Of a stretch of DNA of 42,239 nt, positions 1,913-37,960 are shown piece by piece (positions within the stretch are counted from its first letter, which is position 1; each line of letters begins with the position of its first letter). The stretch covers positions 1-42,239 of the forward strand of contig PNAA01000031.1 of assembly GCA_003169975.1 (NCBI GenBank), given 5' to 3'. Made by a program: the position numbers and the translations under genes. Origin of the DNA: Spartobacteria bacterium (GTDB lineage: Bacteria > Verrucomicrobiota > Verrucomicrobiia > Chthoniobacterales > UBA10450). The notes under the pieces were generated by a model, which saw only the letters and a list, made by a program, of their open reading frames with translations, did no database searches and was not told the DNA's origin.

Positions 1913-4285
1913 TCACTGCAAGCAATAGACTTCAATCAGGCCGACACCGGTCTGTGCGCCGTTGCCGCGCACGATGGCAGTGTAGGCACCCGGCGTGAGC
2001 CAGCCGAGGGTGGCGGACTCCAGCGGGTCGGTCGGTGCCAGGGCCGCTGCTTGCAGGTCGAGCGCCTGGGTGTCGGCCCAATTATCGTTGGAGGTCACCA
2101 GCGCGCCATTCGAGTCGTGCAACTCCAGCGTCGGATCGGCCAGCGCGCCGCTCACCCCGAGAGTCGCGAGAGAAGGACCGAGTGCTCGCACAACCACTTT
2201 CGGACAGCCGGTCTCTCCGCCGAGAATAAATCCGCCGATCATGACGGAGTCCTGGAGGCCGACAAACCCGCGCGTGCTGATATTGGCGAGCTTGGAAGCA
2301 GAGGTCGGACTCAGGTCGTAGACCTCGGCCAGACCGATCCCGCCGCCACTCGCTCCACCTGACACGACGGCGGTGTATGCGCCCGGCGGGAGTGTGAGCC
2401 TGACGGCGGCTTCGGCATCGTTCGACGGCGCGAGGCCGCTTGCTGTGATCGCGTCTTTCTGCGTGCTTTGCCAGTCGTCATTCGAGGCGATGACGGCGCC
2501 GGTCTGATCGTGAATCTCCAAGGCAGGATTCGCGAGCACGCCCGACACCCCAAATTGGGCAAGCGACGGACCGAGCGCGCGCACCAGCAGATCCTTCGAC
2601 GCCGCGCCCGAGATGATAAAGCCGGCGATCGCCTGGTTCTCGCCCGGACCGACATTCATCCGGGTGGAAATGTTCGCCAGCCCCTGGGTGACCGTGATCG
2701 CCAGCGGCGCGGCGAGGATGACGGGGTCGTTGTTGCCTAACGTTCCGGACGGATCGCGCGGAAATTTTGCATAAGGCAGGCGCGCGCCTTCGAAGATCGT
2801 TTCATCCGCGCCGATCGCCAGCGGGGTGAGGAAATCGACCGTGCCGGAAGCCGCCACGAGGTCGTCCTGGTCCACGCCGTCGCCGCTCACGCCGATCGCG
2901 CCGATCATCTGTCCGTTGCGATAGAGCGGAAAGCCGCCCGGGAAAATGGTGATGCCGTTAGGCAGATTTTGATTGATGACGAAGTTCGGATTGAGGGTCA
3001 CGTTCGACAGTGTGCCTAACAAACCCGAGACCGCTTCCTGTTGACCGAAATACGGCCCGGCGTGGTTCGCGTCGATCCCCGGCGGGTAATGGCTTTGCGC
3101 GAGGAAACCCACCGTGCGCGCCGACATCGCCACCGTGTTGCCGTTATTCGAAAACGCGATCGCGGTGCGTGCTTTTTGCACCGCCACATCCCAACTGAAG
3201 ACGGTCGCTTCGCCGGTTCGAAAGGTTCCGAGGACAGTCGGCGCGATATTGTTCTGATTCGGAAAATTGACCACGCTGATGAATGCCTCCATCTGAACGC
3301 CGATCGGCAGCCGGATGCCGGCGCGCGTCGTGCGGACGCGGTCCGCGGCGGCCGCGAGAATGCCGGTCACTTCCGCCGCCGTGAGGCGCGCCTGCCCGTT
3401 AATCGTGCCGAGGATCGGATCGCTGATGATGGGCTGGCGAATTTGTCCCTGCACGCCGCCGAGGGTGACGACCGGATACGGGAACGGCGGCGGCGCGCCC
3501 TGGATCGGATACGCAGCCGCGACGTTTCCCGGCAGGGTCAGCGTGCCCGGCAGTTGCGTGCTGCTCTCGGTGTACTCGAGACTGATGCCGTTGATGAAAA
3601 CGTTTGTCGCGAGAATGTCCGACGACGGCTTGTAACCTATCTGCCCGGCCAGGGCGACGTCTTCGTCCTTGTCGTAGCCGGCAATAAAAATGAATGGGTT
3701 TTCCGCCCGGAAACCCACGATCGCCGGCGGCGTGCCGTCGCCTGTGACGCCGACACCACCGACCAGGTATCCGCCTTTATAAAGCGGAACGCCGCCCGGC
3801 GTGCCATCGAGCGATGTGAAAGGCACTGGCATGATGGCCGTGCCAGGCGTCGGACTGAAGACCGTGACGGTGCCCGGCGCCTTAAATTTGTTGATGTCGG
3901 AGAAAAAGAGACTCGACAAGCCGACCCCGACCAGCGGTCCAGTCGGGGTGTTGAAAACGCCGGGCGGGAAATGTTGTTGAATGATGAATCCGGCTGTGCG
4001 CGAAGTGAACGCGTTCTGATCGCTGCTCAGGAAGGCGGCCGAGCCCGCCTTGGAAACGCAGGTTGCGACTTCCTGCATGGTCGGCTCACCTCCGTGCACA
4101 TTCCAAACGCCGAGCACGAAGCCCTCGCGATCAACCACCGCGATGACGCTGTTCGGGGAAATTTGCTGCGCCCGGGAGGCGGCCTGGCTGATGATTTTTT
4201 GCACATCGCCCGCCGTCAGTTGAGCGACGGCGGATGAGGCCCAGCAAAGGGCCCCGAAAAGAAGAACAAGCCGGCGGAGAATCAT
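1913..4285 (-). CDS. Secreted double GlcG/HbpS-like protein with tandem C-terminal module
   Basis: This encodes 790 residues from the ATG at 4285, chosen because a classic signal peptide (MILRRLVLLF to AVAQ) starts there. A longer frame exists upstream but would bury it. Two domains resemble the GlcG/HbpS (DUF336) family, whose members include extracellular heme-binding proteins. They lie at about residues 25-275 and 340-560. Each has a VIAVVD- or FISVVN-like strand and a G-X-P-LY-(K/R)-(G/N)-G-X-(L/M)-(V/I)-G segment. Two copies of a roughly 115-residue module follow (ANISTR... NDDW ... PGAYTAVV ... EVY), the last ending at the C-terminus. The same module closes three other proteins here. 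Heme binding is inferred from family and from the neighbouring multiheme operon. No axial ligand was identified. It is divergent from the porin operon. Confidence 0.85.
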   Translation of the reverse strand: MILRRLVLLFGALCWASSAVAQLTAGDVQKIISQAASRAQQISPNSVIAVVDREGFVLGVWNVHGGEPTMQEVATCVSKAGSAAFLSSDQNAFTSRTAGFIIQQHFPPGVFNTPTGPLVGVGLSSLFFSDINKFKAPGTVTVFSPTPGTAIMPVPFTSLDGTPGGVPLYKGGYLVGGVGVTGDGTPPAIVGFRAENPFIFIAGYDKDEDVALAGQIGYKPSSDILATNVFINGISLEYTESSTQLPGTLTLPGNVAAAYPIQGAPPPFPYPVVTLGGVQGQIRQPIISDPILGTINGQARLTAAEVTGILAAAADRVRTTRAGIRLPIGVQMEAFISVVNFPNQNNIAPTVLGTFRTGEATVFSWDVAVQKARTAIAFSNNGNTVAMSARTVGFLAQSHYPPGIDANHAGPYFGQQEAVSGLLGTLSNVTLNPNFVINQNLPNGITIFPGGFPLYRNGQMIGAIGVSGDGVDQDDLVAASGTVDFLTPLAIGADETIFEGARLPYAKFPRDPSGTLGNNDPVILAAPLAITVTQGLANISTRMNVGPGENQAIAGFIISGAASKDLLVRALGPSLAQFGVSGVLANPALEIHDQTGAVIASNDDWQSTQKDAITASGLAPSNDAEAAVRLTLPPGAYTAVVSGGASGGGIGLAEVYDLSPTSASKLANISTRGFVGLQDSVMIGGFILGGETGCPKVVVRALGPSLATLGVSGALADPTLELHDSNGALVTSNDNWADTQALDLQAAALAPTDPLESATLGWLTPGAYTAIVRGNGAQTGVGLIEVYCLQ

Positions 4286-4423: not shown

Positions 4424-6550
4424 ATGATTTGCGTGGCTCTTCCGTTGGACGTTGGACGTTGGACGTTAAACGTTGGACGTTTTCTGGTCGGCTTGCTCTT
4501 CATTTCTTCGTCTCTGCGAGCGCAGGATCCCGCTGCCAAAGAAACGTTCAACGTCCAACTGGAAGACGAAAGCGATTCCCTGCGTCTGCGCGATCTCGGA
4601 TCCCAAAGATTCACGCTCGCCCAGATCCAGCGCCTCGCGCCGGATGCGGCCAAGGAAGAGCCCGCGCCATCTCCCTCACCTTCGCCGCCGCCGCCTTTCA
4701 ATCCCGACCCGGGCGCGCCTAACGAGCCGGAATCGATCGAGCCGCCGAGTTTGTTTCCACCGGTCATCCCGCCGCTTCCTCAGTACGGCGAAGAAGCGCT
4801 CCCGCGCTCGCTCGAGCTGCCGCGTCACGACATGCGCGAAATCGTGCCGGACCGGCACAAGCTCGAGTACGAGAATTATCCCGACGCCGCGCACAACCAG
4901 GGTCTCCTGCCCAACTCCCGGGCGGTGCCGAATCGATGGTTCGTCGGCTTCGGACGCTGGAAACGTTATGCCGATCCCTCGACCGAGACGCCCTACCAAT
5001 CAGGCGGTCTGAAACTCTGGCATCCTTATTTGCAGAGCACGCTGAAAGGCGACGCGCCGATCATCGGCGAGGATATTTTTCTTAATCTCACGCTAAGCGA
5101 CTTCTTCCAATTTGAAGCGCGCCGCCTGCCCACTCCCAGCGGCGTGAGCAGCGCGCGGCCGAACAGCTCGGAATTCTTCGGCCGCAGCGAGCAGTATTTT
5201 CTCTCGAACGACGTCTCGATCGGGATTGATCTCTTCCAAGGCGAGACCGCCTTCAAACCGGTCCAATGGGCGCTCCGTTTCCTCGGGGTTTACAACAACA
5301 ACTACACCGACGTGCAGGAGACCAACGTGCTCGATCCCGATCCGCGCCTCGCGAACACGACGCGCTACAAGGATTTCTACGCGCTTCAGGAAGCCTTCGC
5401 CGAGATCCACATCCGCGATCTTTCGAATAACTACGACTTCATTTCCTCGCGCTTCGGCATTCAACCGTTCGTGAGCGATTTTCGCGGCTTCATTTTCAAT
5501 GACTCCAACCTCGGCGTGCGCATCTTCGGCAACTACGACAACAATCGCTGGCAATACAATCTCGCCGCCTTCGAGATGCTCGAAAAGGATACCTACTCGG
5601 ACTTGAACACTTTCGATTCGCGCGATCAGCAGGTCTTGATTGCGAATGTTTTTCGGCAGGATTTTTTCGCCAAGGGCTACACCGCAGAGTTGAGTTTCCA
5701 CGCCGATCTTGACGGCGCGAGCCGGCACTACGACAAGAACGGTTTCATCACCCGGCCGGCGCCGATCGGCAAAGTGCAGGATCATTCCCTGGAGGCGTAT
5801 TACCTCGGGTGGACGGGCGACGGCCACATCGGCTGGCTCAACATCACCCACGCTTTTTATGAGGTCCTCGGGGAGGACAACCTGAACGGCATCGCGGGCC
5901 GGCGGGTCTCGATCAATGCGCAGATGGCGGCGCTCGAACTCTCGATCGACCGGGACTGGCTCCGCCAAAAGATCACGCTCTTTTACGCGAGCGGCGACAG
6001 CAAGCCGAGGGATGGGACCGCCACCGGTTTCGACACGATCATTGACCGGCCTTTTCTTTTTGGCGGACCGTTCAGCTTTTACGTGCACCAGGGCTTCAAT
6101 CTCGCGGGCACGGCGGTGAATTTTAAGCAGCGCGACAGCCTGGTGCCCGATTTTCGCACCAGCAAAACCGAGGGTCAGGCCAACTTCGTCAACCCCGGCG
6201 TGTTCCTCGTCGGTTACGGCCTCGATGCCGATGTCACGCCGAAACTGAAGGCTTTCGTCAACCTGAACTACATCCGGACGATGACCACCGCGGTCACCGA
6301 ACAGGTGCTCTTCACCAATCATGCGAGCAACGATATTGGATTCGATTTCAGCCTCGGATTGCAATGGCGCCCGCTGCTCACCGACAACGTGATCATTAGC
6401 GCGGGCATGGGGTTTCTTGTCCCGGGGCAGGGCTACAAGGATATCTACCGGACTAATACGCGGCCGGTGCCGGGGTTTGGGAATCCCCCGGCCGGGAGTG
6501 TGGATGATTTTCTGTATAGCGGGATTCTTACTGTCACGCTGACCTACTAA
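4424..6550 (+). CDS. Outer-membrane beta-barrel (porin-like) partner of decaheme cytochrome
   Basis: This encodes 708 residues from the ATG at 4424, which has a strong GAGGAG Shine-Dalgarno. The signal peptide (to SSSLRAQD) is unusual: its n-region LPLDVGRWTLNVGRF is encoded by the heptamer array at 4444-4481. A proline-rich linker (about residues 85-125) leads into a long beta-barrel. It shows alternating aromatic and polar strands, many Asn-Asn turns, and a C-terminal strand TVTLTY ending in an aromatic residue, the usual outer-membrane insertion signal. It resembles no named porin that I can identify. The downstream decaheme gene suggests a porin-cytochrome conduit, in which the barrel would sheathe or anchor the cytochrome. 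That role is inferred. An ordinary solute porin is the alternative. Confidence 0.8.
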   Translation: MICVALPLDVGRWTLNVGRFLVGLLFISSSLRAQDPAAKETFNVQLEDESDSLRLRDLGSQRFTLAQIQRLAPDAAKEEPAPSPSPSPPPPFNPDPGAPNEPESIEPPSLFPPVIPPLPQYGEEALPRSLELPRHDMREIVPDRHKLEYENYPDAAHNQGLLPNSRAVPNRWFVGFGRWKRYADPSTETPYQSGGLKLWHPYLQSTLKGDAPIIGEDIFLNLTLSDFFQFEARRLPTPSGVSSARPNSSEFFGRSEQYFLSNDVSIGIDLFQGETAFKPVQWALRFLGVYNNNYTDVQETNVLDPDPRLANTTRYKDFYALQEAFAEIHIRDLSNNYDFISSRFGIQPFVSDFRGFIFNDSNLGVRIFGNYDNNRWQYNLAAFEMLEKDTYSDLNTFDSRDQQVLIANVFRQDFFAKGYTAELSFHADLDGASRHYDKNGFITRPAPIGKVQDHSLEAYYLGWTGDGHIGWLNITHAFYEVLGEDNLNGIAGRRVSINAQMAALELSIDRDWLRQKITLFYASGDSKPRDGTATGFDTIIDRPFLFGGPFSFYVHQGFNLAGTAVNFKQRDSLVPDFRTSKTEGQANFVNPGVFLVGYGLDADVTPKLKAFVNLNYIRTMTTAVTEQVLFTNHASNDIGFDFSLGLQWRPLLTDNVIISAGMGFLVPGQGYKDIYRTNTRPVPGFGNPPAGSVDDFLYSGILTVTLTY
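4444..4481 (+). repeat. Heptanucleotide array, five GTTGRAC-type units (in porin signal peptide)
   Basis: Five 7-base units (four GTTGGAC, one GTTAAAC) plus GTT make 38 bases, preceded by CTCTTCC. Seven-base periodicity gives a seven-residue peptide periodicity across 21 bases. Arrays of the same length occur at 6642-6679 (inverted) and 7082-7119. Two inverted units, GTTCAAC and GTCCAAC, lie just downstream at 4546-4559. Confidence 0.9.
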
Positions 6551-6552
6551 TC

Positions 6553-7065
6553 ATGAGGAAGAAGAAAACGTTCAACGTTCAGCGCGACGGACGTGTTCGG
6601 GAAGAGCCTGACGCGTCCTTCAGTAGGGAAGAAAAAGGCAGAACGTCCAACGTCCAACGTCCAACGTCCAACGTCCAACGTAGAGGGGAAAACGGCGCGA
6701 CGTTGCGCGAGAAACCTTTTGATCTGGAAGACCGGCTGCTTGAATACGCAGTGCGAGTGATTCGATTGGTGGATTCGCTGCCCGCGACCAGGGCAGGCAG
6801 ACACGTTGCCGATCAGTTACTGCGCTGCGGGACCTCGCCGCTCGCAAATCATGGCGAACTTCAAGGGGCGGAATCACGCAAGGATTTCATTCACAAGCCT
6901 GGCATTTGCCTGAAAGAAATTCGGGAAGCGCAGCGCTGGCTCCGCCTGGTTCATCGCGTTCCGTTAGTCGCTCCAGGAAAAATTGAACCCTTGTTAAGCG
7001 AGACGGAAGCGCTCATCAAAATCTTCGCCGCCAGCATCCGCACGGCGGAGAAGAACGCGCGATGA
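6553..7065 (+). CDS. Four-helix-bundle protein (23S rRNA-intervening-sequence family) with repeat-encoded N-terminus
   Basis: This encodes 170 residues. The C-terminal 115 or so, from FDLEDRLLEYAVRVIRLV onward, match the four-helix-bundle family first known from 23S rRNA intervening sequences. Shared features are a CGTS-like turn, an N-H-G-E-(L/A) segment, an S-R-K-D-F-type helix and LLSETEALIKIF. The molecular role of the family is not established. The N-terminal 50 residues are basic and low-complexity and are partly encoded by heptamer repeats (SNVQRPTSNVQR), so the true start is uncertain. TTG at 6703 is a possible internal start. The gene begins two bases after the porin stop and overlaps the cytochrome start (ATGA at 7062-7065), so it is probably co-translated in the operon. 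Confidence 0.75.
   Translation: MRKKKTFNVQRDGRVREEPDASFSREEKGRTSNVQRPTSNVQRRGENGATLREKPFDLEDRLLEYAVRVIRLVDSLPATRAGRHVADQLLRCGTSPLANHGELQGAESRKDFIHKPGICLKEIREAQRWLRLVHRVPLVAPGKIEPLLSETEALIKIFAASIRTAEKNAR
6570..6583 (+). repeat. Two isolated inverted heptamer units
   Basis: GTTCAAC (6570-6576) and GTTCAGC (6577-6583) are inverse-orientation units of the same heptamer family, at the extreme 5' end of the four-helix-bundle gene. Confidence 0.6.
6642..6681 (-). repeat. Heptanucleotide array, five units, inverted orientation
   Basis: Five perfect GTCCAAC units (6645-6679) preceded by AAC read as five GTTGGAC units plus GTT on the minus strand. This is the same 38-base length as the arrays at 4444 and 7082. 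Together with the direct array at 7082-7119 it brackets the conserved part of the four-helix-bundle gene as an inverted pair. Confidence 0.9.
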
Positions 7066-10000
7066 CGAGTTCTTCTCTTCCGTTGAACGTTGAACGTTGG
7101 ACGTTGAACGTTGAACGTTTTCTTCTTCCTCTCCTACTTTTCCTTCCTTCCTTCGGCAGCGCACAGGATTCCACTTCCGGCTACGGTCCTCCCACCGCCG
7201 TCTCCCCTAACGAATCAATCACCGCTCCCGTCGCGCTCCCTCCGCGCAACTGGATCGACCAGACCCAGGCACAGGCCGACGCCAAGAGCATCGGCTGCAA
7301 CGAGTGTCACAATGGGATCGAGCCGATGCACGCCGCCCCGCATGTCGTGCTCGGTTGCACCGATTGCCACGGCGGCAACCCGGCTCGCGGCCTAACGAAA
7401 GAGCAGGCGCACGTCCCGCCGCGCAACCCGGAATTCTTTCGCACCTCGGCCAATCCCCCGCGCTCCGACGTCTGGCTCAACCATGAATCGCCCGAATTTA
7501 TTCAGTTCATGAACCCCGGCGACCTGCGCGTGGCGGAGAAGACCTGCGGTCTTTGTCACGGCGAAATCGTGCACAACGTCGATCACAGCATGATGAATCA
7601 CGGCGCCATGCTCTGGGGCGCCGCGCTTTATAACAACGGCGGTGTCCCCTACAAGAATTACCGCTTCGGCCAGGCCTACGGCGCGGATGGCGTCCCGTTG
7701 CGCCTCGTCAATTACACCCCGGTTACGCCTAACGACACCAAGGTGCACGGCATTCTCCCGTTCCTCGATCCGCTCCCGCGCTTTAACCTGAGCAACCCGG
7801 GCAACGTCCTGCGCATTTTTGAAAAAGGCGGCGAGAAACAGTTGCAGCTCGGTGTCCCGACGATCAACGAGCCGCCCGGCCGGCCGGCGCGCCGTTTATC
7901 CGAGCGCGGTCTCGGCACGCTCAACCGCACCGATCCGGTCTTCCTCGGTCTGCAAAAAACTCGGCTGCACGATCCGCTTCTCGGCTTCCTTGGGACGAAC
8001 GATCACCCGGGCGATTTTCGCTCGAGCGGCTGCTCGGCCTGCCACGTCGTTTACGCCAACGATCGCTCACCCTCGAACTCTGGCTGGTGGAGCAAATACG
8101 GCCACGACGGGCTCAGCTTCACGGCCGACAAATCGATTCCGAAAAACGAGCGCGGCCATCCGATCATGCACCAGTTCACGCGCTCGATCCCTTCCAGCCA
8201 GTGCATGAATTGCCACATGCATCAGGGCAATTTGTTTGTGAATCCCTATCTCGGTTACACCTGGTGGGATCAGGAAACCGACGGCGAATTCATGTATCCG
8301 AAGGTGCAGCACAACCCGACGGATGCGGAACTCGTCCAGGTCACGCAGAGCAATCCGGAGGCCGCCGCGGCGCGCGGCCTTTGGGGCGACCCCGATTTTG
8401 CCGCGCACACCGCCGAGTTAAATCCGAAATTGCAGCACACGCAGTTCGCCGATTATCACGGGCACGGCTGGATCTTTCGCGCAGTCTTCAAACACGATCG
8501 CAAGGGAGTCCTCCTCGACCTCGAGGACCACCCGATTTCGCCTAACGACCCGCAGAAATTCGCCAAAGCGATCCATCTGAAGGATATCCATCTCGCGCGC
8601 GGCATGCAGTGCGTCGACTGCCATTTCCTGAACGACGTGCACGGCAACGGTCAGCTCTATGGCGAGCCGCGGAACGCGACCTCGATCGGTTGCGTGGATT
8701 GTCACGGCTCCGTTGCGGATCGGCCCACGCTCATCACTTCCGGCAACGCCGGCCAGGTTAATTTGAAGAACAGCAACACGCCTTGGGGACCGCGTTTTAT
8801 CTGGGAGGGCACGGCGCTTTATCAGCAATCAAGCATGTCGCCCGATGTGCGCTGGGAAATTCCGCAGACGATCGACACGATTGATCCGGCCTCGTCGCAT
8901 TACAACGCGAAGTCGGCTTACGCGAAAACACTCCAGCGCGACGGGACAACGTGGGGAGGAGTTCCGAGCAGCTCGAAGGAACGGTGCCAGCGGCTCGCGC
9001 ACGACAACGGCGCGATGGATTGCCAGATCTGCCACACTTCCTGGGCGACGAGTTGTTTCGGCTGCCACCTGCCGATGAAGGCAAATCAGCGCGTCGCGCA
9101 AAACAAATTCGAAGGCGTCACCGACCGTAACTATACGACTTACAATCCGCAGGTCGTGCGCGACGACGTTTTCATGCTCGGGCTCGACGGCTCGGTGAAA
9201 AAGAATCGCATGGCCGTGATCCGCTCCTCGAGCGCGGTCGTGGTCAGTTCGCAGAATGCCAACCGCGAGTGGGTTTACTCGCAGCAACAAACTTTCTCCG
9301 CGGAAGGTTACAGCGGCCAGGCTTTCAATCCGCATTTCCCGCACACCACGAGCGGCGTCGGAACGACGAAAAATTGCGAGGACTGCCATCTCTCGCAGAA
9401 GAACGACAACAACGCCTGGATGACGTCGTTGTTAGGCTTCGGCACCGGTACGGTGAACTTTTTCGGTCGTTACGCCTACGTCGGCGCCGGGCGCGACGGT
9501 CTGCACGCGGTCGTTTGGACCGAACCAGACGAGCCGCAGGCGGTCATCGGCAGTCATCTGCAGAAGATCGCCTACCCGGATGATTACCGGAAGCATGTCG
9601 AGGGCGGCTCGGTTCTGACCGAAGCCTACGAGCATCGTGGACACGACATTCAGGACATCGTCTTGCGCGGCGAGTATCTCTACACCGCGAACGGACCGGG
9701 CGGCTTCGAAGTTTTCGACGTCGCGAATATCGACCAGAAAGGATTTTCCGAGCGGATTGTGAGCGCGCCGGTTTCGCCGCTTGGTCAACGTACGCGCATT
9801 CACACCAAATACGCGACGAGCATCGCGCTGCCGAGCACGCTCGCGCTCGATCCGGCGCGGCAACATCTGCCGGAAAACGAAGAACAAAAAATCCCCCTCT
9901 TCTACGCCTACGTCTACATTTCCGATCGCGAAGAAGGCCTCGTCATTTCCAATGTCGCGACCCTCGTGGACGGCAATCCCGACAACAATTTCCTGAAGGA

Positions 10001-10907
10001 GAGCGAGACGATCCGCTTCAACCCGAACGGCGTGCTCACGGGCGCGAGTTTTGTCGCGGCGGCCGGCCATCGGTTATACCTGACCACGCCGCAGGGCTTG
10101 TTCGTGGTCGAGGTCGGCGAGGATGGCTCGCATCCGCGCATCACGGGCCAGGTGACAAACGGTTTCCTGCGCCATCCGCGGTGCGTCGCGATTCAATTCC
10201 GCTACGCCTTTGTCACCGATGACGACGGGCTCAAGGTTCTCGACATCACCAATCCCGACCAGCCGGTCCCGGTGCGCAGCGGATTCGTTAGGCTAAAGAA
10301 TGCCGGCCGGTTATACGTCGCGCGCACCTACGCCTACATCGCCAATGGTCCGGAAGGCCTCGCGATTATCGACGTCGAAAATCCCGAGCGGCCGCGGCTC
10401 GACCAGATGTTCAACGCCGGCGGCGCGCTTAACGACACGCGCGCGGTGCAGGTCGGCAGCGTCAGCGCCTCGCAGTTCGCGCTCGTCGCCGATGGGAAAA
10501 ACGGATTGCGTGTTCTCCAGCTCATCTCACCCGACACGGTGCCCGGCGCGGCGGGCTTCAGTCCGCGCCCCAATCCAAAATTGATCGCGACCTACCCCGT
10601 GGAAGGAGAAGCGATCTGTGTCTCCCGCGGGCTGGAGCGCGACCGGGTGGTGGATGAAACCGGTGGACAAACCGTCGTCTTCGGCCGGCGCGGCGCGCGG
10701 CCGTTTCATCTCTCGGAAATGCTGCCGTTCCTGCGCCATTTCGACGGGATGTATCCGCCTAACGAAAACGCGACGCATACCGGGCCGCTTTACCGGGTGG
10801 AAAACGTCGAGTTGCATGGCGAGAAACTTTTCACCAGCAGCGCCCGTGAACTGGAGGCGATGCCGACACCTTCTCCGACACCTTCGCCCACCGTTCCCGC
10901 GCCCTGA
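7062..10907 (+). CDS. Secreted decaheme c-type cytochrome fused to LVIVD-type beta-propeller
   Basis: This encodes 1281 residues. A signal peptide (to FGSAQD) again has an n-region encoded by heptamer repeats. Ten CXXCH heme sites follow, at about residues 79, 99, 162, 324, 381, 516, 543, 653, 664 and 771. Many His residues between them could serve as distal ligands. From about residue 790 to 1190 come six or so repeats of the LVIVD type (YLYTANGPGGFEVFDV, YAFVTDDDGLKVLDI, YAYIANGPEGLAIIDV), predicted to form a beta-propeller. The protein ends in a Pro-Thr-Ser tail. It lies beyond the Sec pathway, in the periplasm or at the cell surface. The ATG overlaps the preceding stop, so it is translationally coupled. 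With the porin two genes upstream it suggests an outer-membrane electron conduit. An enzymatic multiheme oxidoreductase is the alternative. Confidence 0.92.
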   Translation: MTSSSLPLNVERWTLNVERFLLPLLLFLPSFGSAQDSTSGYGPPTAVSPNESITAPVALPPRNWIDQTQAQADAKSIGCNECHNGIEPMHAAPHVVLGCTDCHGGNPARGLTKEQAHVPPRNPEFFRTSANPPRSDVWLNHESPEFIQFMNPGDLRVAEKTCGLCHGEIVHNVDHSMMNHGAMLWGAALYNNGGVPYKNYRFGQAYGADGVPLRLVNYTPVTPNDTKVHGILPFLDPLPRFNLSNPGNVLRIFEKGGEKQLQLGVPTINEPPGRPARRLSERGLGTLNRTDPVFLGLQKTRLHDPLLGFLGTNDHPGDFRSSGCSACHVVYANDRSPSNSGWWSKYGHDGLSFTADKSIPKNERGHPIMHQFTRSIPSSQCMNCHMHQGNLFVNPYLGYTWWDQETDGEFMYPKVQHNPTDAELVQVTQSNPEAAAARGLWGDPDFAAHTAELNPKLQHTQFADYHGHGWIFRAVFKHDRKGVLLDLEDHPISPNDPQKFAKAIHLKDIHLARGMQCVDCHFLNDVHGNGQLYGEPRNATSIGCVDCHGSVADRPTLITSGNAGQVNLKNSNTPWGPRFIWEGTALYQQSSMSPDVRWEIPQTIDTIDPASSHYNAKSAYAKTLQRDGTTWGGVPSSSKERCQRLAHDNGAMDCQICHTSWATSCFGCHLPMKANQRVAQNKFEGVTDRNYTTYNPQVVRDDVFMLGLDGSVKKNRMAVIRSSSAVVVSSQNANREWVYSQQQTFSAEGYSGQAFNPHFPHTTSGVGTTKNCEDCHLSQKNDNNAWMTSLLGFGTGTVNFFGRYAYVGAGRDGLHAVVWTEPDEPQAVIGSHLQKIAYPDDYRKHVEGGSVLTEAYEHRGHDIQDIVLRGEYLYTANGPGGFEVFDVANIDQKGFSERIVSAPVSPLGQRTRIHTKYATSIALPSTLALDPARQHLPENEEQKIPLFYAYVYISDREEGLVISNVATLVDGNPDNNFLKESETIRFNPNGVLTGASFVAAAGHRLYLTTPQGLFVVEVGEDGSHPRITGQVTNGFLRHPRCVAIQFRYAFVTDDDGLKVLDITNPDQPVPVRSGFVRLKNAGRLYVARTYAYIANGPEGLAIIDVENPERPRLDQMFNAGGALNDTRAVQVGSVSASQFALVADGKNGLRVLQLISPDTVPGAAGFSPRPNPKLIATYPVEGEAICVSRGLERDRVVDETGGQTVVFGRRGARPFHLSEMLPFLRHFDGMYPPNENATHTGPLYRVENVELHGEKLFTSSARELEAMPTPSPTPSPTVPAP
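7082..7119 (+). repeat. Heptanucleotide array, five GTTGRAC units (in cytochrome signal peptide)
   Basis: Four GTTGAAC and one GTTGGAC unit plus GTT make 38 bases, preceded by CTCTTCC and followed by TTCT, exactly as in the array at 4444-4481. It encodes LPLNVERWTLNVERF at the start of the decaheme cytochrome, in the same reading frame as the porin copy. Confidence 0.9.
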
Positions 10908-10931
10908 CTGGACCGCGGAGAAACGCTTGAT

Positions 10932-13358
10932 TCAAGGCTTCGCCTTCTGCGACGGGGCCGCGGCGCTGAGTTTTTGAAAGCGCGGATCCTTGCGCAGCGG
11001 ATCGAACATCGGATCGAGGCGGAGGAGCGCGGGAGTAATCGGCAGGAGCGAAGCCAGCGCGCCCTCGCACGAGGGCATCGAGAGGAGCTTTTTGATAGCT
11101 GCGATGGCACGATCGGGCTCTCCCAGGCGTGCTGTCACGCGGGCGAGGACTTCAATCGGTGCGGAACTGGCCAACGCGTCTTTCTCGATTGGATTTGCGG
11201 CGATGGCCTGTTCCGCCAAAGCCACGGCGGCAGCCTTGTCGCCCAGGCTCATCGCGATCAGCGCGAGATCTCCCCGCAGGCTATAATTTTCCGGCTGCTC
11301 CTTGAGAAAAGATTCCAGTTCGTGGCGCGCTTCTCGCCAGGTTTCCCTCGCCGCGGTGGTGTCGCCCGCCACTTCTTGCGCCCAGCCTAACCAAAAGCGC
11401 AGTTCGCCATTGAGATAGCCCAAGGCGGGATCCGGCTTGGCCAATATCTCCTTGAGCCGAGGAATGACCGGTGCCGGGTTGCGCTCCAGAATCGCCTGGA
11501 AAAATTGTGTCTCCAACGCCGTGGTATCGTCCGCGGGCGGGTGAAGCGGAGCGAGAATCGCCGCGGCCCGCGGCAGATCGCCCTCGGCTTGTGCGATGCC
11601 CGCCTTGTTCACGAGGGTATCGATGTCGTCCGGCGCGATATTGAGCACCTGATCAAGCTTGCGCAGCGCTTCGGGAAAACGACGCTGGTCGATATAGAAG
11701 AGCGCGTACTGGGTTAATAACTCGACGTTGCGCGGGTCGAGCCGCTCGGCCTCTTTGAAATACGACTCGCACCGCTCCCACTGGCCTCGCCGCCGCGCGA
11801 CATAAGCCAGCCATTCAGGAACTTTGCTGCTATTGGGCAGAAGTGGGCGTGCCTGCTCAAAGTATCGCTCCGCGGTGTCCCAATCTTTCAGGCCGGAGTA
11901 ATAGTAATATCCTTTGGCCATCACGGCCTCGCCGAGATTGGGCTGAAGAGCGAGCGCTGTGTCGGCTGCCCGCTGCGTCTCTGCACGGAGCTCGACCGTG
12001 GGTTGCAGAGTCAGGGTGTCGTATCCGAGCGCATCGACATAGGCCAGCAGCGCCCAACCAAGGGCGAACTTCGGGTCCAACCTAACCGCTTCCCTGAGAT
12101 ATTTCTGTGCGTCAAGGGCGTTGGCGGATGTGTTACCACTCTTCAAGGTATAGGCCAGTCCGCGGAGGTAGGCGGTGTAGGCGTCCGGATTGTCGGTCGG
12201 CCGGGCGGCGATGACTTGCTCCTCCCGCCCGCTGAGGTGCGCGCGCAATTGATCGGCGATGGCTTTGGCGACGTCACTCTCGACTGAGAAGATGTCGGTC
12301 AGTTTGCGATCGAAGGTATCGGCCCAAAGATGGGAGTCATTGGCGGCCTTGATCAACTGCACGTTTACTCGCACGGCTGCGCCGTTCTTCTGCACGCTTC
12401 CTTCCAGGATGTGGGCGACACCAAGTTGTCGGGCGATCTCGGGCAGGTTTTCCGGCGCGCTTTTGTAGTGCTCAGTCGATGTCCGCGAGATCACCTTCAG
12501 ATCGGCGATCTTGGATAAGCGCGTCAGGATTTCGTCCTGGATGCCGTCGGCAAAGTAGGCGTTCGCCTTGTCTTCGCTCAGGTTTTGGAACGGCAGCACC
12601 GCGATCGATTTTTCCGGGATCACCGCGAGTGACGCCGCGGTGGAAGACCCTCTCGAGCCAGACCGATGTGAGAAAATGTAAAATCCCGCGGCGACGGCCG
12701 CGATGACGAGCGCGGCGATCAATGGACGTGACCATCTCGCCGGTTTCGCGTTCGCCCGCGCTGTTTGCGCCTCTCTTGCCTTGCGGAATTTCGCCGGCTC
12801 TTCCGGGTTGCCGAGTTCCTCCGTGTAGAGATTAACGACGGAGACGCGCACGCCGTGTTTCACCTCGCATTCGCCCAGGTCGTGCAGGTGCGGACGCCAT
12901 TCCGGATAATGCTCGAGGTCATCCGCCACATGTTTGGAGAGAAGGATGTGTCCGGCATCGCCGCAATCCATCACGCGCTGCGCCATGTTGATCCCGACGC
13001 CGGCCACGCCCGCCTGCTCGTTCACATCGATGACGCCACTGACCGGCCCGCTGTGCACACCCATGCGTAATTGCAGGTTGGGGTGGTCTTTCAGCGCGCG
13101 GCTGATTTCGAGCGCACATTCCGCCGGCTCTTCCGGGCTCCCGTAGAAAACCAGCGCCATCCCATCGCCCGTGGGAATCTTGATCAGTTTGCCGGCGGCT
13201 TCCGCCGCTTGAAATTCCTCCGTGTTGCGGACGATTTGGATAAGCGTATCGCGCAACGCGCGCTGCTCGCTAATCAGCAGCTTCGAGTAACCGACGATGT
13301 CGCTGAACAAGACATGCGCGATCTCGAGGTGAATTTCTCTTTTAACTTCGGTGGACAT
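10932..13358 (-). CDS. Class III nucleotidyl cyclase with membrane segment, FlgO/TolB-like and TPR domains
   Basis: This encodes 808 residues. Residues 10-180 are a class III cyclase catalytic domain. The metal-binding aspartates are D20 (LFSDIVGYS) and D65 (TGDGMAL), K60 is a candidate base-recognition lysine, and N124 and R128 fit the transition-state pair. The position that is Thr or Asp in typical adenylate cyclases appears to be Gly, so nucleotide preference is uncertain. A single transmembrane segment lies at 212-229. After it comes an IAVLPFQNLSED... ISRTS domain, common in such cyclases, then many TPRs to the C-terminus. The TPR half would lie on the far side of the membrane and may sense a partner. 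It is the last gene of a three-gene operon, starting 12 bases after the decaheme cytochrome stop. Confidence 0.9.
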   Translation of the reverse strand: MSTEVKREIHLEIAHVLFSDIVGYSKLLISEQRALRDTLIQIVRNTEEFQAAEAAGKLIKIPTGDGMALVFYGSPEEPAECALEISRALKDHPNLQLRMGVHSGPVSGVIDVNEQAGVAGVGINMAQRVMDCGDAGHILLSKHVADDLEHYPEWRPHLHDLGECEVKHGVRVSVVNLYTEELGNPEEPAKFRKAREAQTARANAKPARWSRPLIAALVIAAVAAGFYIFSHRSGSRGSSTAASLAVIPEKSIAVLPFQNLSEDKANAYFADGIQDEILTRLSKIADLKVISRTSTEHYKSAPENLPEIARQLGVAHILEGSVQKNGAAVRVNVQLIKAANDSHLWADTFDRKLTDIFSVESDVAKAIADQLRAHLSGREEQVIAARPTDNPDAYTAYLRGLAYTLKSGNTSANALDAQKYLREAVRLDPKFALGWALLAYVDALGYDTLTLQPTVELRAETQRAADTALALQPNLGEAVMAKGYYYYSGLKDWDTAERYFEQARPLLPNSSKVPEWLAYVARRRGQWERCESYFKEAERLDPRNVELLTQYALFYIDQRRFPEALRKLDQVLNIAPDDIDTLVNKAGIAQAEGDLPRAAAILAPLHPPADDTTALETQFFQAILERNPAPVIPRLKEILAKPDPALGYLNGELRFWLGWAQEVAGDTTAARETWREARHELESFLKEQPENYSLRGDLALIAMSLGDKAAAVALAEQAIAANPIEKDALASSAPIEVLARVTARLGEPDRAIAAIKKLLSMPSCEGALASLLPITPALLRLDPMFDPLRKDPRFQKLSAAAPSQKAKP

Positions 13359-13370: not shown

Positions 13371-14852
13371 TCACTGCCGCCGCGCGGTCGCGGCTTTTTG
13401 GCCAAGCCTTGTTTCTGCCGCGGTGAGTGACGCCGGCGCATGGTAGCTGTGGCAGGTGAGGCATTCGGCCACGACTTTTCCTTTTGGGCTGTGGCAGGTG
13501 ACGCAACTGGCTATGCCCGGCATGAGCACATCGGAGGTGAGGCGGCTGCGCGTGGCGTGATGGCACTCGTTGCAAGCGAGGGGCCGGAGCGTATTCGGGT
13601 CGACTTGATGTTTGGCGTGATCGAACCGGGCTCGGAGCATCCAGCGATCGACGAAAATCGGCTTGGCGATGAACGGCGCCTCATGCGCCACCGGTTGCAC
13701 GTCGTGGCAAAGCGCGCAGCCATAAAATAAGGCGCGCACCCGCGGCTCGGTTTCCAGCTGCGGCTTGTAGGGGTCCTTGGTAAAAAAAATCTGGTGCTCG
13801 AAATCTTCGCCCGAATGCACGCGCGCGCGCAATTGCAGCATTTGCCGGGTAACGAAGTTTTTGATCTCGTTAGGCTGGGTGATCCCTTTTCTTGCCGCCA
13901 GCTCCGCGTAATGCGCCGGAAGGCTGAGGAGGAAGCCACGTACCGCCGTCGTGTTGCCATGGGGCAAAGTGAGCTCGGGATTCTTCGGATCGAACTGGAG
14001 CGAATGACAGGCCTGGCACTGTGCCGCGAAAGTGATGCGCTGATTATTGTAACGCCCCTCGGAGTCGGGCTGGTGACAATAATTGCACGCGAGCTTCTTG
14101 CCGCCGACGATCGGGATGTCGGGAGCGAAATGCCGCTCGTGATTAAACTTCAGCGCGTCGCGATCGCGCGCCGGCTCCCGCTTGAGCTGAAATTCCGGAT
14201 GACCATCCCAGAACGAAGGGAAAACCTGGGTGTAACCGTCCACCGGCCGCGGCAAATCGAAGACGATCTGATGGGGCGGGTGGGGATGCCGCTGGAAATT
14301 TGTCCAGTCGAGCTGCCGCCCTTTCAGGGCGGAAGCTGCCATCGTTAGGCGATCGTCGTGGCAGGCGGCGCATTGCGCGCTCGCCACTATTTTCATCGGC
14401 CCGGGGCCGCGATGTTCCTGATGACAGACTGAACACGAGCGATTTTTCACGACGTTCGGCTCGTGAAAGTCGTAGATCCGCTTGTCCTGTTTGAGATGGC
14501 AGGCCGCGCAATTTTTGTCGATCGGGTCAAAGGCAATGCCGTGATGAAACCGATCGCTCAGCACCTTTTGGAATTTGATCGGCCTCAGCCGAGCGTCGGT
14601 CAGCGACGACTTGTCGTGGCAGCTCGCGCATTTTTCGATCAGGGCCGCGTGAGCGGCCGAAAGTTTTCCCGGGTTAAAGAATCTTTCGTCGCCTCTCCTC
14701 TGATAAGCGATGATCGCCGCGAGTCCGACGGAGAGGGCGAGAAAGCTCGCGATGAAACGCGCCGATCGCCACAAGTGGGCCTTGCGGTAATAGCCGAGAT
14801 TGCCTTGGTATTTCTCGGCGATCTGCTTCTGCGTCCTTCGGGGCGTGGCCAT
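13371..14852 (-). CDS. Membrane-anchored decaheme c-type cytochrome
   Basis: This encodes 493 residues. One uncleaved transmembrane helix at about 31-50, after a basic cytoplasmic tail, anchors a periplasmic domain. That domain has ten CXXCH sites, the first at residues 75, 115, 140 and 161 and the last three clustered near 437, 458 and 470. Histidine-rich segments such as HHGIAFDP, HPHPPH and FNHERHF could supply distal ligands, as in doubled-CXXCH and c7-type cytochromes. The start lies six bases after the cytochrome-b-like stop, and a cyclase follows. The likely role is to receive electrons from the membrane protein and pass them through the periplasm. Direction and partners are inferred. 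Confidence 0.92.
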   Translation of the reverse strand: MATPRRTQKQIAEKYQGNLGYYRKAHLWRSARFIASFLALSVGLAAIIAYQRRGDERFFNPGKLSAAHAALIEKCASCHDKSSLTDARLRPIKFQKVLSDRFHHGIAFDPIDKNCAACHLKQDKRIYDFHEPNVVKNRSCSVCHQEHRGPGPMKIVASAQCAACHDDRLTMAASALKGRQLDWTNFQRHPHPPHQIVFDLPRPVDGYTQVFPSFWDGHPEFQLKREPARDRDALKFNHERHFAPDIPIVGGKKLACNYCHQPDSEGRYNNQRITFAAQCQACHSLQFDPKNPELTLPHGNTTAVRGFLLSLPAHYAELAARKGITQPNEIKNFVTRQMLQLRARVHSGEDFEHQIFFTKDPYKPQLETEPRVRALFYGCALCHDVQPVAHEAPFIAKPIFVDRWMLRARFDHAKHQVDPNTLRPLACNECHHATRSRLTSDVLMPGIASCVTCHSPKGKVVAECLTCHSYHAPASLTAAETRLGQKAATARRQ

Positions 14853-14858: not shown

Positions 14859-15773
14859 TCAGTAATAAAACAGGGTCACAAACGCATGCCATGCGGTGAG
14901 CATGAGGAGGAGAAAGGAAAAAGGCACATGCACGAAAAGCCAGGCGTGCAGCCAGTGGTGCAACCGGATTTGCAAATCGAGCAGCCGGCGCTGATCGCAC
15001 CACGCCTGCATTTCTTCGAGCCGGCTGTGATACGCTTCCGTCACCCGGAGTCTTACGAAACGGAAGGCGTCGTCCGAATAAGCGTTGTCGCCGAGCCGAA
15101 ACCCTCGGCCGCGCCGCGCCTTGAGATAAGGCATGACTTGTTCTTCGAGAAACGCGACGAGCGCGGTCTCCGATTCGGCGTCGACGGCTGAAGGGCTCGC
15201 CGCAGTCTTCTGGGGCGCGGCCGACTTGAAGGCGTGGCACATCTTTTCCGCCGCGCGAAAGAGCTGCGCGCGAATGTGCGGGATTTGTTCGTAGACGGTT
15301 TCGGCGGGCAATCGCTCTTGCATGACGCGGGGCATCCGGTTTTGCAGGAACAATCCGTAGATGCCGCTCACCATGACCACGCTGTAAAACACCATGAGCA
15401 GAGTGGTCATCGGCCCGCCGAGCCGAAAGCCGCTGTGCAGGAGAACGAGCGGGATGGTGAGCAGGGTGAGCCAGATGTGAGCGCGCAGCCAGCGTTGCAC
15501 GCTGCCGATGGGCCAGAGGACCACTCTTTTGCGCAGGCTGAGGAGCGCGCCAAAAATAAAAATCGCGAATGAAACCGCGCCGAAAATCAAACCGACGGGA
15601 GTGCCGCCGATGCTGCGATGTTCCGATGTCTTTTGCACGAGCGCCGAGGGCAAACTCAGCCGGGGGGGTAACCGCGCCGGATAAAAATTTTCCACATAGA
15701 TCCAGCCGGCGGCGATGGTCGCCAGCACGACAAAGAGGAACCAGGGAACGTGCGCGCGATTAAGAATTCGCAT
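14859..15773 (-). CDS. Cytochrome-b-like integral membrane protein
   Basis: This encodes 304 residues with about five transmembrane helices at roughly 10-27, 60-80, 97-117, 124-144 and 279-300. Two helices carry histidines with 13 residues between them (H99 and H113, H282 and H296). This is the spacing expected for two bis-histidine b hemes stacked across the membrane. A 130-residue hydrophilic, helical loop separates helices 4 and 5. The protein probably exchanges electrons with the quinone pool or the cytoplasmic side and delivers them to the decaheme cytochrome encoded six bases downstream. I cannot assign it to a named cytochrome b family. Ferric-reductase-like or di-heme b-type subunits are the closest ideas. 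Confidence 0.8.
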   Translation of the reverse strand: MRILNRAHVPWFLFVVLATIAAGWIYVENFYPARLPPRLSLPSALVQKTSEHRSIGGTPVGLIFGAVSFAIFIFGALLSLRKRVVLWPIGSVQRWLRAHIWLTLLTIPLVLLHSGFRLGGPMTTLLMVFYSVVMVSGIYGLFLQNRMPRVMQERLPAETVYEQIPHIRAQLFRAAEKMCHAFKSAAPQKTAASPSAVDAESETALVAFLEEQVMPYLKARRGRGFRLGDNAYSDDAFRFVRLRVTEAYHSRLEEMQAWCDQRRLLDLQIRLHHWLHAWLFVHVPFSFLLLMLTAWHAFVTLFYY

Positions 15774-15987: not shown

Positions 15988-17151
15988 GTGAGCGATGGAG
16001 CGTTTTACCGGTGGGCGGCCTGCGGGGCGATCGCCGTTTATCTGGCCGGGAACCCGGCCGCAGCAGGAAACACCGTCCCGCTTCAGACTGGCCAATTTGT
16101 CGGAACGGCCGGTTGCAAATCGTCCAGTTGCCACGGCGGGGCCGGCGAAAAGCGCAGCCAATATTTCACCTGGGTGCAGCAGGATTTTCACGCACGGGCT
16201 TATGCGGTCCTGGTCGACGCCCGCTCGGCGCGGATGGCCGAGACCCTTTCCTTGCCGGCCGCGCAAACGAGCGAACGCTGCACGGTTTGTCATTCCCCGT
16301 TGCAATCGGTCGCCCCCGCGCGCCTCGCGAAAACCGCCCGCGTCGATGAAGGCGTCTCCTGCGAAAGTTGTCACGGGGCCGCCGGGCCATGGCTCCGCGG
16401 GCACACCCGCAAAGACTGGAGTTACGCCACCCGCGTGACCGCCGGGATGCACGATCTCCGCAACTTCTACGTCCGCGCGAATACCTGCGTCGCCTGCCAC
16501 CAGAATCTTGCTCCGGAACTTCTGCAGGCCGGCCATCCGGAACTCATCTTCGAGTTGGATGGCCAGTCGGTCGCGGAGCCGGAGCACTGGAAGGACGATG
16601 ATCCGGCACGTGGCCCGCGCGCGTGGCTGGTCGGGCAGGCGGTCGCACTGCGCGAGATGAGTTGGGCGCTCGCGCAAAATGAGACGGTCGACTCGGAAAG
16701 CGTGAACCGTTGGCAGGGGCTCGCCTGGCTGCTGGCCAAAGCCACAGCCACCCAATCGCACCTGCCGCTTATCGCCCCGCCCGGCGAGTCAACCAGCCAC
16801 GCCTTGTTTGTCAGCGTGCAGGAACAGGCGGACTCGCTCGCGCGGCGCGCCGCGGTCGATCCGTGGAACGATGCCTTTGCCGCCACGGCCCTGCGCGCGC
16901 TGGCTTCTGCCGACGCGGATTTCGTCCCAGCAAAAAACATCTCTGCGGACCTGCTTTTTCGTCGCGCGCGGAGACTCGTTCTCGCGCTCGATCGCCTCTC
17001 CCGCGCGACGCAACAGCAGCCATTGGGCGCGACGAAGAATCCCGCACTTTCCCCCCTTTTCGAGGACCTCCGGTTGCAAGCCGATTTTCAGCCCGCGAAA
17101 TTTGCGGCCGATCTGGTAACTTTTCGCACGACAATGGAACGCTCGCCGTAA
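15988..17151 (+). CDS. Tetraheme c-type cytochrome, cytochrome c554-like
   Basis: This encodes 387 residues from a GTG at 15988, the start that preserves the signal peptide (to NPAAAG). Four heme sites are seen: a CX4CH at 43-49 followed by GG, then CXXCH at 98, 125 and 167. Surrounding residues (QDFHARAYAVL, EGVSCESCHG, LQAGHPELIFELD) match the widespread c554-like multiheme family. The C-terminal half lacks heme sites and is mostly helical. It is a periplasmic electron carrier or redox enzyme. The gene heads the plus-strand operon and is followed 101 bases later by the NuoE-NuoF fusion, so it probably shares an electron pathway with that protein. Confidence 0.88.
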   Translation: MSDGAFYRWAACGAIAVYLAGNPAAAGNTVPLQTGQFVGTAGCKSSSCHGGAGEKRSQYFTWVQQDFHARAYAVLVDARSARMAETLSLPAAQTSERCTVCHSPLQSVAPARLAKTARVDEGVSCESCHGAAGPWLRGHTRKDWSYATRVTAGMHDLRNFYVRANTCVACHQNLAPELLQAGHPELIFELDGQSVAEPEHWKDDDPARGPRAWLVGQAVALREMSWALAQNETVDSESVNRWQGLAWLLAKATATQSHLPLIAPPGESTSHALFVSVQEQADSLARRAAVDPWNDAFAATALRALASADADFVPAKNISADLLFRRARRLVLALDRLSRATQQQPLGATKNPALSPLFEDLRLQADFQPAKFAADLVTFRTTMERSP

Positions 17152-31416: not shown

Positions 31417-31493
31417 GTTGCCGAGCCGTCCGCCGCGAGCAAAGCGACGCGAATACCTATTCCCTTCATCAAGTAGTGGAGCCAAAGTAGTGG

Positions 31494-37741: not shown

Positions 37742-37764
37742 CTCAGTTAATTTGGTTAGGAGTT

Positions 37765-37960
37765 GGATCTGGAGATCGCGGCAGGCGGCAATCTCAGCCC
37801 CGAATGCCTTCGGGGTTGAAACGTCGGGTGACGTAATCGAGCACGTCTTAATCAAAAAGCTTCTTGTCCGTCAACAGCAATCTTTCCTTTTCGGGAGCGT
37901 CGTCGGGGCAGAAAATCTTCATCTCTCACCAACCATCTACGGGAAAGGCAATGCGAAGTT
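37765..37960 (-). promoter_or_regulatory. Duplicated leader segment, copy B (upstream of delta-60 gene)
   Basis: It matches copy A (31494-31790) in several blocks in the same order, including ACGTCGGGTGACGTAATCG and CACCAACCATCTACGGGAAAG. It is about 100 bases shorter, because the spacer between two blocks is reduced. It lies immediately upstream of, and partly overlaps the unused 5' extension of, the delta-60 frame. Confidence 0.6.

What the first reader, a model, noticed from the sequence alone, without database searches (positions are those of the whole stretch)
4424..10907. Porin plus decaheme-LVIVD cytochrome: possible new outer-membrane electron conduit
Seen: a beta-barrel ending in an aromatic residue and a secreted decaheme protein are encoded in one tight operon. 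The cytochrome is fused to a beta-propeller of LVIVD-type repeats. Known: porin-cytochrome pairs (the MtrAB and PCC types) move electrons across outer membranes. Here the barrel shows no similarity I can recognise to MtrB, and the propeller fusion is not part of the described conduits I know.
Basis: partly seen in the sequence, partly recalled or inferred. Interest (0 to 1): 0.72.

Follow-up and report, generated by a model that had tools for sequence, protein, structure and literature searches.

The report
Outer-membrane channel paired with decaheme cytochrome
A soil bacterium carries a real, widely conserved gene pair, an outer-membrane channel plus a large ten-heme protein, that belongs to an NAD(P)H-fed electron-export chain; the channel looks like an ordinary narrow transport barrel rather than the wide sheath of known electron conduits, and the same gene set on plasmids of culturable Sphingobium makes its job testable.

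Summary
In detail: window 4424-6550 encodes a secreted beta-barrel, 7062-10907 a secreted protein with ten CXXCH motifs and an LVIVD beta-propeller. Both occur in exactly the same 11 of 387 phylum genomes, also where unlinked, and on the same 13 Sphingobium/Sphingopyxis plasmids: they are partners.

The MtrAB-like conduit reading is weakened. The barrel model matches the alginate exporter AlgE (Foldseek 1.7e-17, Z 28), about 18 strands; the cytochrome uses about 76 residues per heme, not a compact wire.

The pair travels with an inner-membrane module: an NAD(P)H flavoprotein (three interchangeable types), a cyclic-nucleotide-binding Fe-S protein, a diheme cytochrome b, a decaheme and a tetraheme cytochrome. 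This core meets most published PCC4 features (PMC5566968) but lacks the pentaheme. PMC13264449 (2026) lists large decahemes beside porins of about 20 strands, often near a ferredoxin-NADP reductase: probably the same system.

Best reading: a new variant of a known porin-cytochrome kind, an NAD(P)H-driven electron-export chain whose terminal decaheme works at the outer membrane with a substrate or shuttle channel. Substrate unknown.

The parts
4424..6550 (+). outer-membrane beta-barrel, AlgE/OprD-like, about 18 strands, after a low-confidence, probably disordered N-terminal stretch of about 165 mature residues
6553..7065 (+). TIGR02436 / PF05635 four-helix-bundle (IVP) gene between the pair; absent from the homologous position in most relatives
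7062..10907 (+). secreted decaheme c-type cytochrome fused to an LVIVD beta-propeller (propeller roughly residues 800-1195, about 9459-10646)
1913..4285 (-). divergent secreted HbpS-like protein (ORF open to 4420; likely start MILRRL at 4285); conserved neighbour of the pair
   Evidence: PF03928 1.9e-19; found in 39 of 50 named loci with at least 8 kb upstream
13371..14852 (-). decaheme cytochrome with an N-terminal hydrophobic anchor (MHC of the inner-membrane module)
   Evidence: found in 21 of the same 50 loci
14859..15773 (-). diheme cytochrome b-like inner-membrane protein with two WX3HX13H motifs and SGXXG (CYB)
   Evidence: W95, H99, H113, G137, G140, W278, H282, H296 invariant in 18 sequences; co-occurrence
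15988..17151 (+). cytochrome c554-like protein, 3 CX2CH + 1 CX4CH
17253..19307 (+). NuoE-NuoF fusion (FMN/NADH-binding module)
19311..21845 (+). Fe-S protein: 2Fe-2S/HoxU-like N-terminus, two cyclic-nucleotide-binding domains, HydN/DmsB-like 4Fe-4S C-terminus (FES)
10932..13358 (-). class III adenylate/guanylate cyclase-TPR protein next to the pair (possible regulator, untested)
21872..23872 (-). CHASE2-class III cyclase on the far side of the module (possible regulator, untested)
4443..4481 (+). 7-bp tandem array (CGTTGGA) inside the barrel signal-peptide codons
6642..6681 (-). 7-bp tandem array, opposite orientation, inside the four-helix gene
7081..7119 (+). 7-bp tandem array (CGTTGAA) inside the cytochrome signal-peptide codons

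Best explanation
The pair is the outer-membrane end of an NAD(P)H-driven electron-export chain. Inferred electron path: NADH, then flavin/Fe-S of the NuoEF-like protein, then the cyclic-nucleotide-binding Fe-S protein, then the two b hemes of the inner-membrane protein, then the anchored decaheme, then the tetraheme c554-like protein, then the decaheme-LVIVD protein. That last protein is the terminal oxidoreductase, probably in the periplasm or held at the outer membrane. The barrel is an AlgE/OprD-type channel that brings a soluble substrate or redox shuttle to the cytochrome, or lets the product out; it is not a sheath around a heme wire. Shown here: gene content, co-occurrence, conservation of all hemes, barrel fold class (predicted), b-heme ligand motifs. 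Inferred: direction of flow, contacts, location of the cytochrome, role of the channel. Unknown: the substrate.
For: Partnership: in 58 relatives the cytochrome is in 19 and the barrel in 18, all 18 of them cytochrome-positive. The exception, G030, has a cytochrome match that starts at residue 183 and only 7 hemes. In 387 phylum genomes both occur in the same 11. In 3 genomes they are on different contigs yet both present. 72 of 80 named loci hold the barrel gene within the fetched stretch. 13 of 13 plasmids with at least 80% of the cytochrome also hold the barrel. Chain: the b-type protein is in 15 of 15 pair-positive genomes and 0 of 10 others tested, and in 11 of 11 pair-positive against 6 of 376 pair-negative genomes. 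Direction: three different NAD(P)H flavoprotein types accompany the same Fe-S/b/c core: NuoEF in the window, an FNR/Fer2 type in IMCC26134, and a Pyr_redox domain fused to the Fe-S protein in Sphingobium. Channel rather than sheath: AlgE is the top fold match, with Occ/OprD channels also high, and 3 of 49 members hit Pfam Alginate_exp (best 4.1e-5). The cytochrome has about 76 residues per heme, against about 33 quoted for MtrA homologues (PMC5566968 section 15).
Against: No complex was predicted; the tool takes single chains. The heme part of the cytochrome model failed (mean pLDDT 52), so active sites and heme order are unknown. 13 invariant non-motif His are enough for ten bis-His hemes, which does not favour an enzyme. 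He et al. interpret PCC4 as uptake from an extracellular donor, the opposite direction. The barrel's 165-residue N-terminal stretch is unmodelled and could dock or thread cytochrome. Relatives share ancestry, so the co-occurrence counts are not independent.
Confidence: 0.48

Rival explanations
1. True trans-outer-membrane electron conduit: part of the cytochrome (or its N-terminus) inserts into the barrel and carries electrons outwards, as in MtrAB or, with one heme, Cyc2.
For: Barrel and decaheme are near-obligate partners. The module core resembles PCC4, which its authors interpret as an EET conduit. Similar pairs are called PCCs in PMC13264449.
Against: AlgE/OprD-like barrel of about 18 strands; about 76 residues per heme; a propeller of about 400 residues that cannot enter such a barrel.
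Confidence: 0.2
2. Surface cytochrome: the decaheme-LVIVD protein sits on the outside (propeller on barrel) and reduces extracellular acceptors, the barrel acting as docking site or export aid.
For: A surface beta-propeller that serves an outer-membrane barrel, BtuG, appears among the propeller matches (its docking on BtuB is recalled). The HbpS-like partner of Sphingobium has a lipoprotein-like signal.
Against: The script flagged no lipobox in any of 65 cytochrome N-termini, and no sorting domain was recognised by eye; no other route across the barrel for electrons is seen.
Confidence: 0.15
3. Reverse flow: an extracellular or periplasmic donor (metal, phenolic, other) is oxidised by the decaheme and electrons end up on NAD(P)+.
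For: He et al. drew PCC4 with an extracellular electron donor.
Against: Reducing NAD(P)+ from a weak donor is uphill without a coupled quinone or proton-motive step; three NAD(P)H flavoprotein types on one core fit export more simply (inference).
Confidence: 0.1
4. The barrel is a nutrient porin whose linkage to the cytochrome is incidental.
For: Its fold class is that of uptake/export channels.
Against: Co-occurrence in the same 11 of 387 genomes and on the same 13 plasmids, also when unlinked.
Confidence: 0.03

Closest known systems
PCC4 gene cluster (He et al. 2017, PMC5566968)
   Same: 10-heme and 4-heme periplasmic cytochromes, inner-membrane protein with two WX3HX13H motifs and SGXXG, Fe-S protein, redox flavoprotein, porin
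   Different: no pentaheme; instead a 1281-aa decaheme-LVIVD protein and an AlgE-like barrel with no hhalign similarity to the barrel of a PCC4-looking cluster (L139)
'Group 1' porin-cytochrome clusters of PMC13264449 (2026)
   Same: large decaheme (4-5 kb gene) next to a porin of about 20 strands, ferredoxin-NADP reductase nearby in 7 of 11
   Different: sequences not compared here; LVIVD domain, barrel fold and full module are not described in the parts read; 21 of its 36 PCC-bearing MAGs (all groups together) are Gammaproteobacteria or Acidobacteriota
Porin-octaheme cluster of freshwater Verrucomicrobia (He et al. 2017, PMC5615132)
   Same: putative porin-multiheme system in the same phylum, also reported from IMCC26134 and Udaeobacter
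   Different: adjacent cytochrome has eight hemes. A cluster with a DmsE/GSU2203-like 8-heme protein (7 CX2CH + 1 CX4CH) and an unrelated barrel exists separately in this genome (L133) and in IMCC26134 (L135)
Geobacter ExtHIJKLMNOPQS (ExtI porin, ExtM 12-heme; PMC5877670)
   Same: porin plus large multiheme cytochrome and b-type cytochrome; the porin is not a demonstrated conduit; distant ExtM similarity (1.7e-19)
   Different: ExtM score 69.6 against a cut-off of 800; Rieske protein, selenoprotein and rhodanese of that cluster not seen here
MtrAB / MtoAB / PioAB
   Same: outer-membrane barrel plus decaheme
   Different: barrel size class and cytochrome compactness differ
AlgE (alginate export) and OprD/Occ channels
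   Same: barrel fold (AlgE Z 28.1, 2.9 A over 360 residues)
   Different: only 12-14% identity; long N-terminal extension and cytochrome partner

Membership tests
MtrAB/MtoAB/PioAB conduit | very large barrel (24-32 transmembrane regions for MtoB/PioB, PMC5566968) | tested here: not met
   model has 19 strand segments; best match AlgE
MtrAB/MtoAB/PioAB conduit | sequence relation of barrel to MtrB/PioB | tested here: inconclusive
   no MtrB-type family among Pfam hits for 49 barrels; presence of that model in the library was not checked
MtrAB/MtoAB/PioAB conduit | compact wire-like decaheme (about 33 residues per heme) | tested here: not met
   about 76 residues per heme over the cytochrome part; ratio quoted
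MtrAB/MtoAB/PioAB conduit | cytochrome inserted in barrel | not testable with these tools
   single-chain predictions only
PCC4 | inner-membrane protein with two WX3HX13H and SGXXG | tested here: met
   (18 sequences); motif
PCC4 | 10-heme and 4-heme periplasmic cytochromes | tested here: met
   10 CX2CH; 3 CX2CH + 1 CX4CH
PCC4 | 5-heme cytochrome | tested here: not met
   no such ORF among the listed ORFs of the module region; decaheme-LVIVD in its place
PCC4 | Fe-S protein with pfam13247 upstream of the inner-membrane protein | tested here: inconclusive
   window protein hits PF13247 at 1e-4, 22.9 bits, under its cut-off of 26.2, with other Fer4 families above theirs; IMCC26134 relative 2.4e-10, above it; gene order differs in the window
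PCC4 | porin homologous to PCC4 porins | not tested
   no PCC4 porin sequence was fetched by name; one PCC4-looking barrel (L139) shows no similarity
Alginate_exp/AlgE barrels | Pfam PF13372 match | tested here: inconclusive
   3 of 49 members at best 4.1e-5, window barrel none; fold match strong
ExtM | NCBIfam NF040943 cut-off 800 bits | tested here: not met
   69.6 bits
Octaheme nitrite reductase | full-length similarity | tested here: not met
   profile E 2.6e-4, best stretch about 65 residues

The most novel reading that the evidence does not exclude
A distinct class of outer-membrane redox system: a narrow AlgE/OprD-type channel plus a decaheme-propeller oxidoreductase, fed by interchangeable NAD(P)H modules through a cyclic-nucleotide-gated Fe-S protein (cyclases flank it here, a CpdA-annotated phosphodiesterase in Sphingobium), moved between phyla as a set on plasmids, and in this lineage possibly phase-variable through 7-bp repeats in both signal peptides.
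Probability: 0.25. Interest if true: 0.8.

Novelty: new variant of a known kind. Interest (0 to 1): 0.55.

Why it matters
If right, many soil and freshwater Verrucomicrobiota, and plasmid-bearing sphingomonads, share a dedicated NAD(P)H-to-outer-membrane electron route that current porin-cytochrome searches count as a conduit although its barrel looks too narrow. It would force a distinction between 'sheathed wire' and 'channel plus terminal reductase' among genome-predicted electron-transfer systems. The S. herbicidovorans MH plasmid copy gives a cultured host for a direct knockout test.

Tried and rejected
Conduit by homology: the window barrel had no Pfam or NCBIfam hit and no convincing PDB sequence match; 4 Pfam families hit a few of the 49 barrels and none was an MtrB-type family. 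No MtrB chain appears among the 50 rows shown; by the tool's own note this does not exclude it.

The same system as He 2017 (PMC5615132): rejected on description and sequence. Its cytochrome has eight hemes; a matching 8-heme cluster lies elsewhere in this genome and in IMCC26134, with no similarity between barrels (E 0.15, probability 0.4%; that profile had only two rows). Figure 7 of that paper was not visible, so the identification of its cluster is inferred.

Decaheme as a known enzyme: only weak local similarity to eight-heme nitrite reductase. The 50 rows shown of the fold search with the full cytochrome model look like matches of the propeller only, because the heme part was modelled badly.

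Charge of the barrel lumen: a strand-parity estimate gave 10 positive and 16 negative conserved inward positions; not informative.

sigma-70 promoters: none found, 1.6 expected by chance, uninformative. PHROGs for the four-helix gene: none.

Literature: 'LVIVD' with 'multiheme cytochrome' gave 0 papers; 'LVIVD' with 'cytochrome' gave 2 with unrelated titles; 'alginate export' with 'multiheme cytochrome' and 'outer membrane' gave 0. Other paper searches. What was read: PMC5615132 passages and section 12; PMC6344600 passages; PMC5566968 passages and sections 15 and 16; PMC13264449 passages and section 18; PMC5877670 passages; PMC11976967 passages. The other papers named by searches were seen as search listings only.

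Rows dropped: L089 was left out of alignment A3 because its match range contains stop codons (error). A2 holds the window and 48 named loci, A3 the window and 35; partial barrels were not used. One search was given 65 of the 80 named loci; the other 15 were not put into that script. One search kept the best 80 of 279 relatives, so more distant named relatives were not seen.

Recalled, not from a call: strand numbers of AlgE and OprD (18), BtuG docking on BtuB, the general meaning of slippage in 7-bp repeats, and that PF11854 is the MtrB family.
Full report
OBSERVATION. The barrel ORF runs from ATG 4424 to the stop at 6550 and ends in ...VTLTY; the cytochrome ORF runs from 7062 to 10907. The cytochrome has ten CX2CH motifs and an LVIVD propeller. 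A four-helix-bundle gene (6553-7065) lies between them in this genome. In the 80 named loci a relative of it is found at this place in 7 (L053, L054, L058, L059, L072, L100, L111).

CONSERVATION. 11 close homologues of the cytochrome are 64-83% identical to the window protein, and the 12 aligned sequences keep all ten motifs. The named-genome scan returned 80 loci, most of them titled as Verrucomicrobiota, out of 279 relatives. 72 of the 80 have the barrel gene in the fetched stretch. The other eight are L068, L075, L079, L099, L114, L117, L118 and L127; in L068, L099 and L118 the contig ends within about 600 bases upstream. G041, G050 and G057 carry the barrel on another contig than the cytochrome.

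CO-OCCURRENCE. In 58 relatives: cytochrome in 19, barrel in 18, overlap 18 (Fisher 4e-14). In 387 genomes of the phylum: 11 and 11, the same genomes (Fisher 2e-21). The two samples share members, and relatedness is ignored by these tests. The one discordant genome, G030, has a cytochrome ORF with 7 hemes, and its match begins at query residue 183. It also lacks the b-type protein, as expected of decay; a misassembly is possible.

HORIZONTAL COPY. A translated search of plasmids found full-length cytochrome homologues (41-46% identity, 99% of the query) on 13 Sphingobium/Sphingopyxis plasmids (3 further cyanobacterial records match the propeller end only). A search with the Sphingobium barrel hit the same 13 records and no other. 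In S. herbicidovorans MH plasmid pMSHV the order is c554-like, HbpS-like, barrel, decaheme, nearly without gaps. Nearby on the opposite strand are a decaheme cytochrome, the b-type protein, the cyclic-nucleotide-binding Fe-S protein and a metallophosphoesterase; in TomMM7A the neighbour is annotated as the cAMP phosphodiesterase CpdA. Matches of the smaller parts are weaker: c554 36%, HbpS 30%, Fe-S 27-30%, b-type 26-28%, MHC 27-28%. In Sphingopyxis only the four-gene half lies in the fetched stretch.

THE ELECTRON-INPUT MODULE. Beside the pair the window encodes an anchored decaheme, a b-type protein, a tetraheme c554-like protein, a NuoEF fusion and a Fe-S protein with two cyclic-nucleotide-binding domains. 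In an alignment of 18 b-type proteins all four histidines of two HX13H motifs are invariant. The b-type protein is in 15 of 15 pair-positive and 0 of 10 other genomes tested (25 genomes chosen from the 58). Across the phylum it is in 11 of 11 pair-positive and 6 of 376 pair-negative genomes. So in these samples the pair is not seen without the b-type gene, but that gene occurs without the pair. Of the six genomes with the module alone, one (G180, locus L139) has a different barrel and a five-heme protein next to the module and looks like a published PCC4 cluster; I saw no such pair in the stretches of the other five. Of 50 named loci with at least 8 kb upstream, 21 show MHC and b-type genes, 19 the Fe-S gene, 17 an FNR-type gene and 2 NuoEF; no locus has both FNR and NuoEF. 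Three NAD(P)H flavoprotein types with one core suggest that electrons enter from NAD(P)H; this is inference.

BARREL STRUCTURE. The AlphaFold model from 49 sequences (mean pLDDT 76.8; barrel part mostly around 90) has 19 strand segments. Foldseek's best matches are AlgE structures (1.7e-17), then MOMP, chitoporin and Occ/OprD channels. VIA-align gives AlgE Z 28.1, 2.9 A over 360 residues. 3 of 49 members hit Pfam Alginate_exp. MtoB/PioB are given as 24-32 transmembrane regions in PMC5566968. A barrel of this class is unlikely to sheath a decaheme wire, though one or two hemes, as proposed for Cyc2, cannot be excluded.

CYTOCHROME. Only the propeller was modelled well. In 39 sequences, 13 histidines outside the motifs are invariant, so ten bis-His hemes are possible and no open heme site can be claimed. 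There are about 76 residues per heme. Distant similarity to ExtM and local similarity to octaheme nitrite reductase leave a terminal-reductase role open.

RELATION TO KNOWN SYSTEMS. PCC4 (PMC5566968) supplies the nearest module; the five-heme component is missing here and the decaheme-LVIVD protein takes its place. PMC13264449 reports 11 clusters with a large decaheme beside a porin of about 20 strands, 7 of them with a ferredoxin-NADP reductase nearby; this is probably the same system, but no sequences were compared. The porin-octaheme cluster of PMC5615132 appears to be a different locus, present elsewhere in this genome. The paper searches run here (in particular) found no description of the LVIVD fusion or of an AlgE-like barrel in such a system.

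VERDICT. A real, conserved and transferable electron-transfer unit; the conduit claim is only partly supported. Most likely mechanism: channel plus terminal decaheme oxidoreductase fed by NAD(P)H. Substrate and cellular location are open. New variant of a known kind.

Noticed in passing
window 4443-4481, 6642-6681, 7081-7119: Three 7-bp tandem arrays, all inside this operon: two code for the signal-peptide start of the barrel and the cytochrome, the third lies inverted in the four-helix gene. A 7-bp unit shifts the reading frame on slippage, so phase variation is conceivable. The exact 21-mer pattern occurs 16 times at few sites genome-wide.
   Followed up: partly
window 6553-7065; L053, L059, L072, L100, L111, L078: Where the four-helix-bundle gene lies between the pair, heptamer-type repeats occur at or near the cytochrome start in several relatives (the unit's sequence differs); L054 and L058 have the gene without a repeat found by the script, and L078 has a different heptamer without the gene. 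May be a mobile unit.
   Followed up: partly
window 10932-13358 and 21872-23872; L151 19942-20790: Class III cyclases flank the module here, and a metallophosphoesterase (CpdA-annotated in L153) lies beside it in Sphingobium, while the Fe-S protein carries two cyclic-nucleotide-binding domains.
   Followed up: partly
L133 (G000:C13, about 7896-10924) and L135 10135-13268: A second porin plus DmsE/GSU2203-like octaheme cluster in the same genome and in IMCC26134, probably the type published in PMC5615132.
   Followed up: partly
window 1913-3000, 27628-31485, 31940-37855, 40079-42238: A C-terminal repeat resembling 'NISTRxxVxxGDxxxIGGFI...' is shared by the HbpS-like protein and several large repeat proteins of the window; possibly a secretion or surface domain (by eye).
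   Followed up: no
L139 7502-19921: A PCC4-like cluster with a 486-aa barrel and a five-heme C554/MtrC-like protein beside the same inner-membrane module, in a genome without the decaheme-LVIVD pair.
   Followed up: partly
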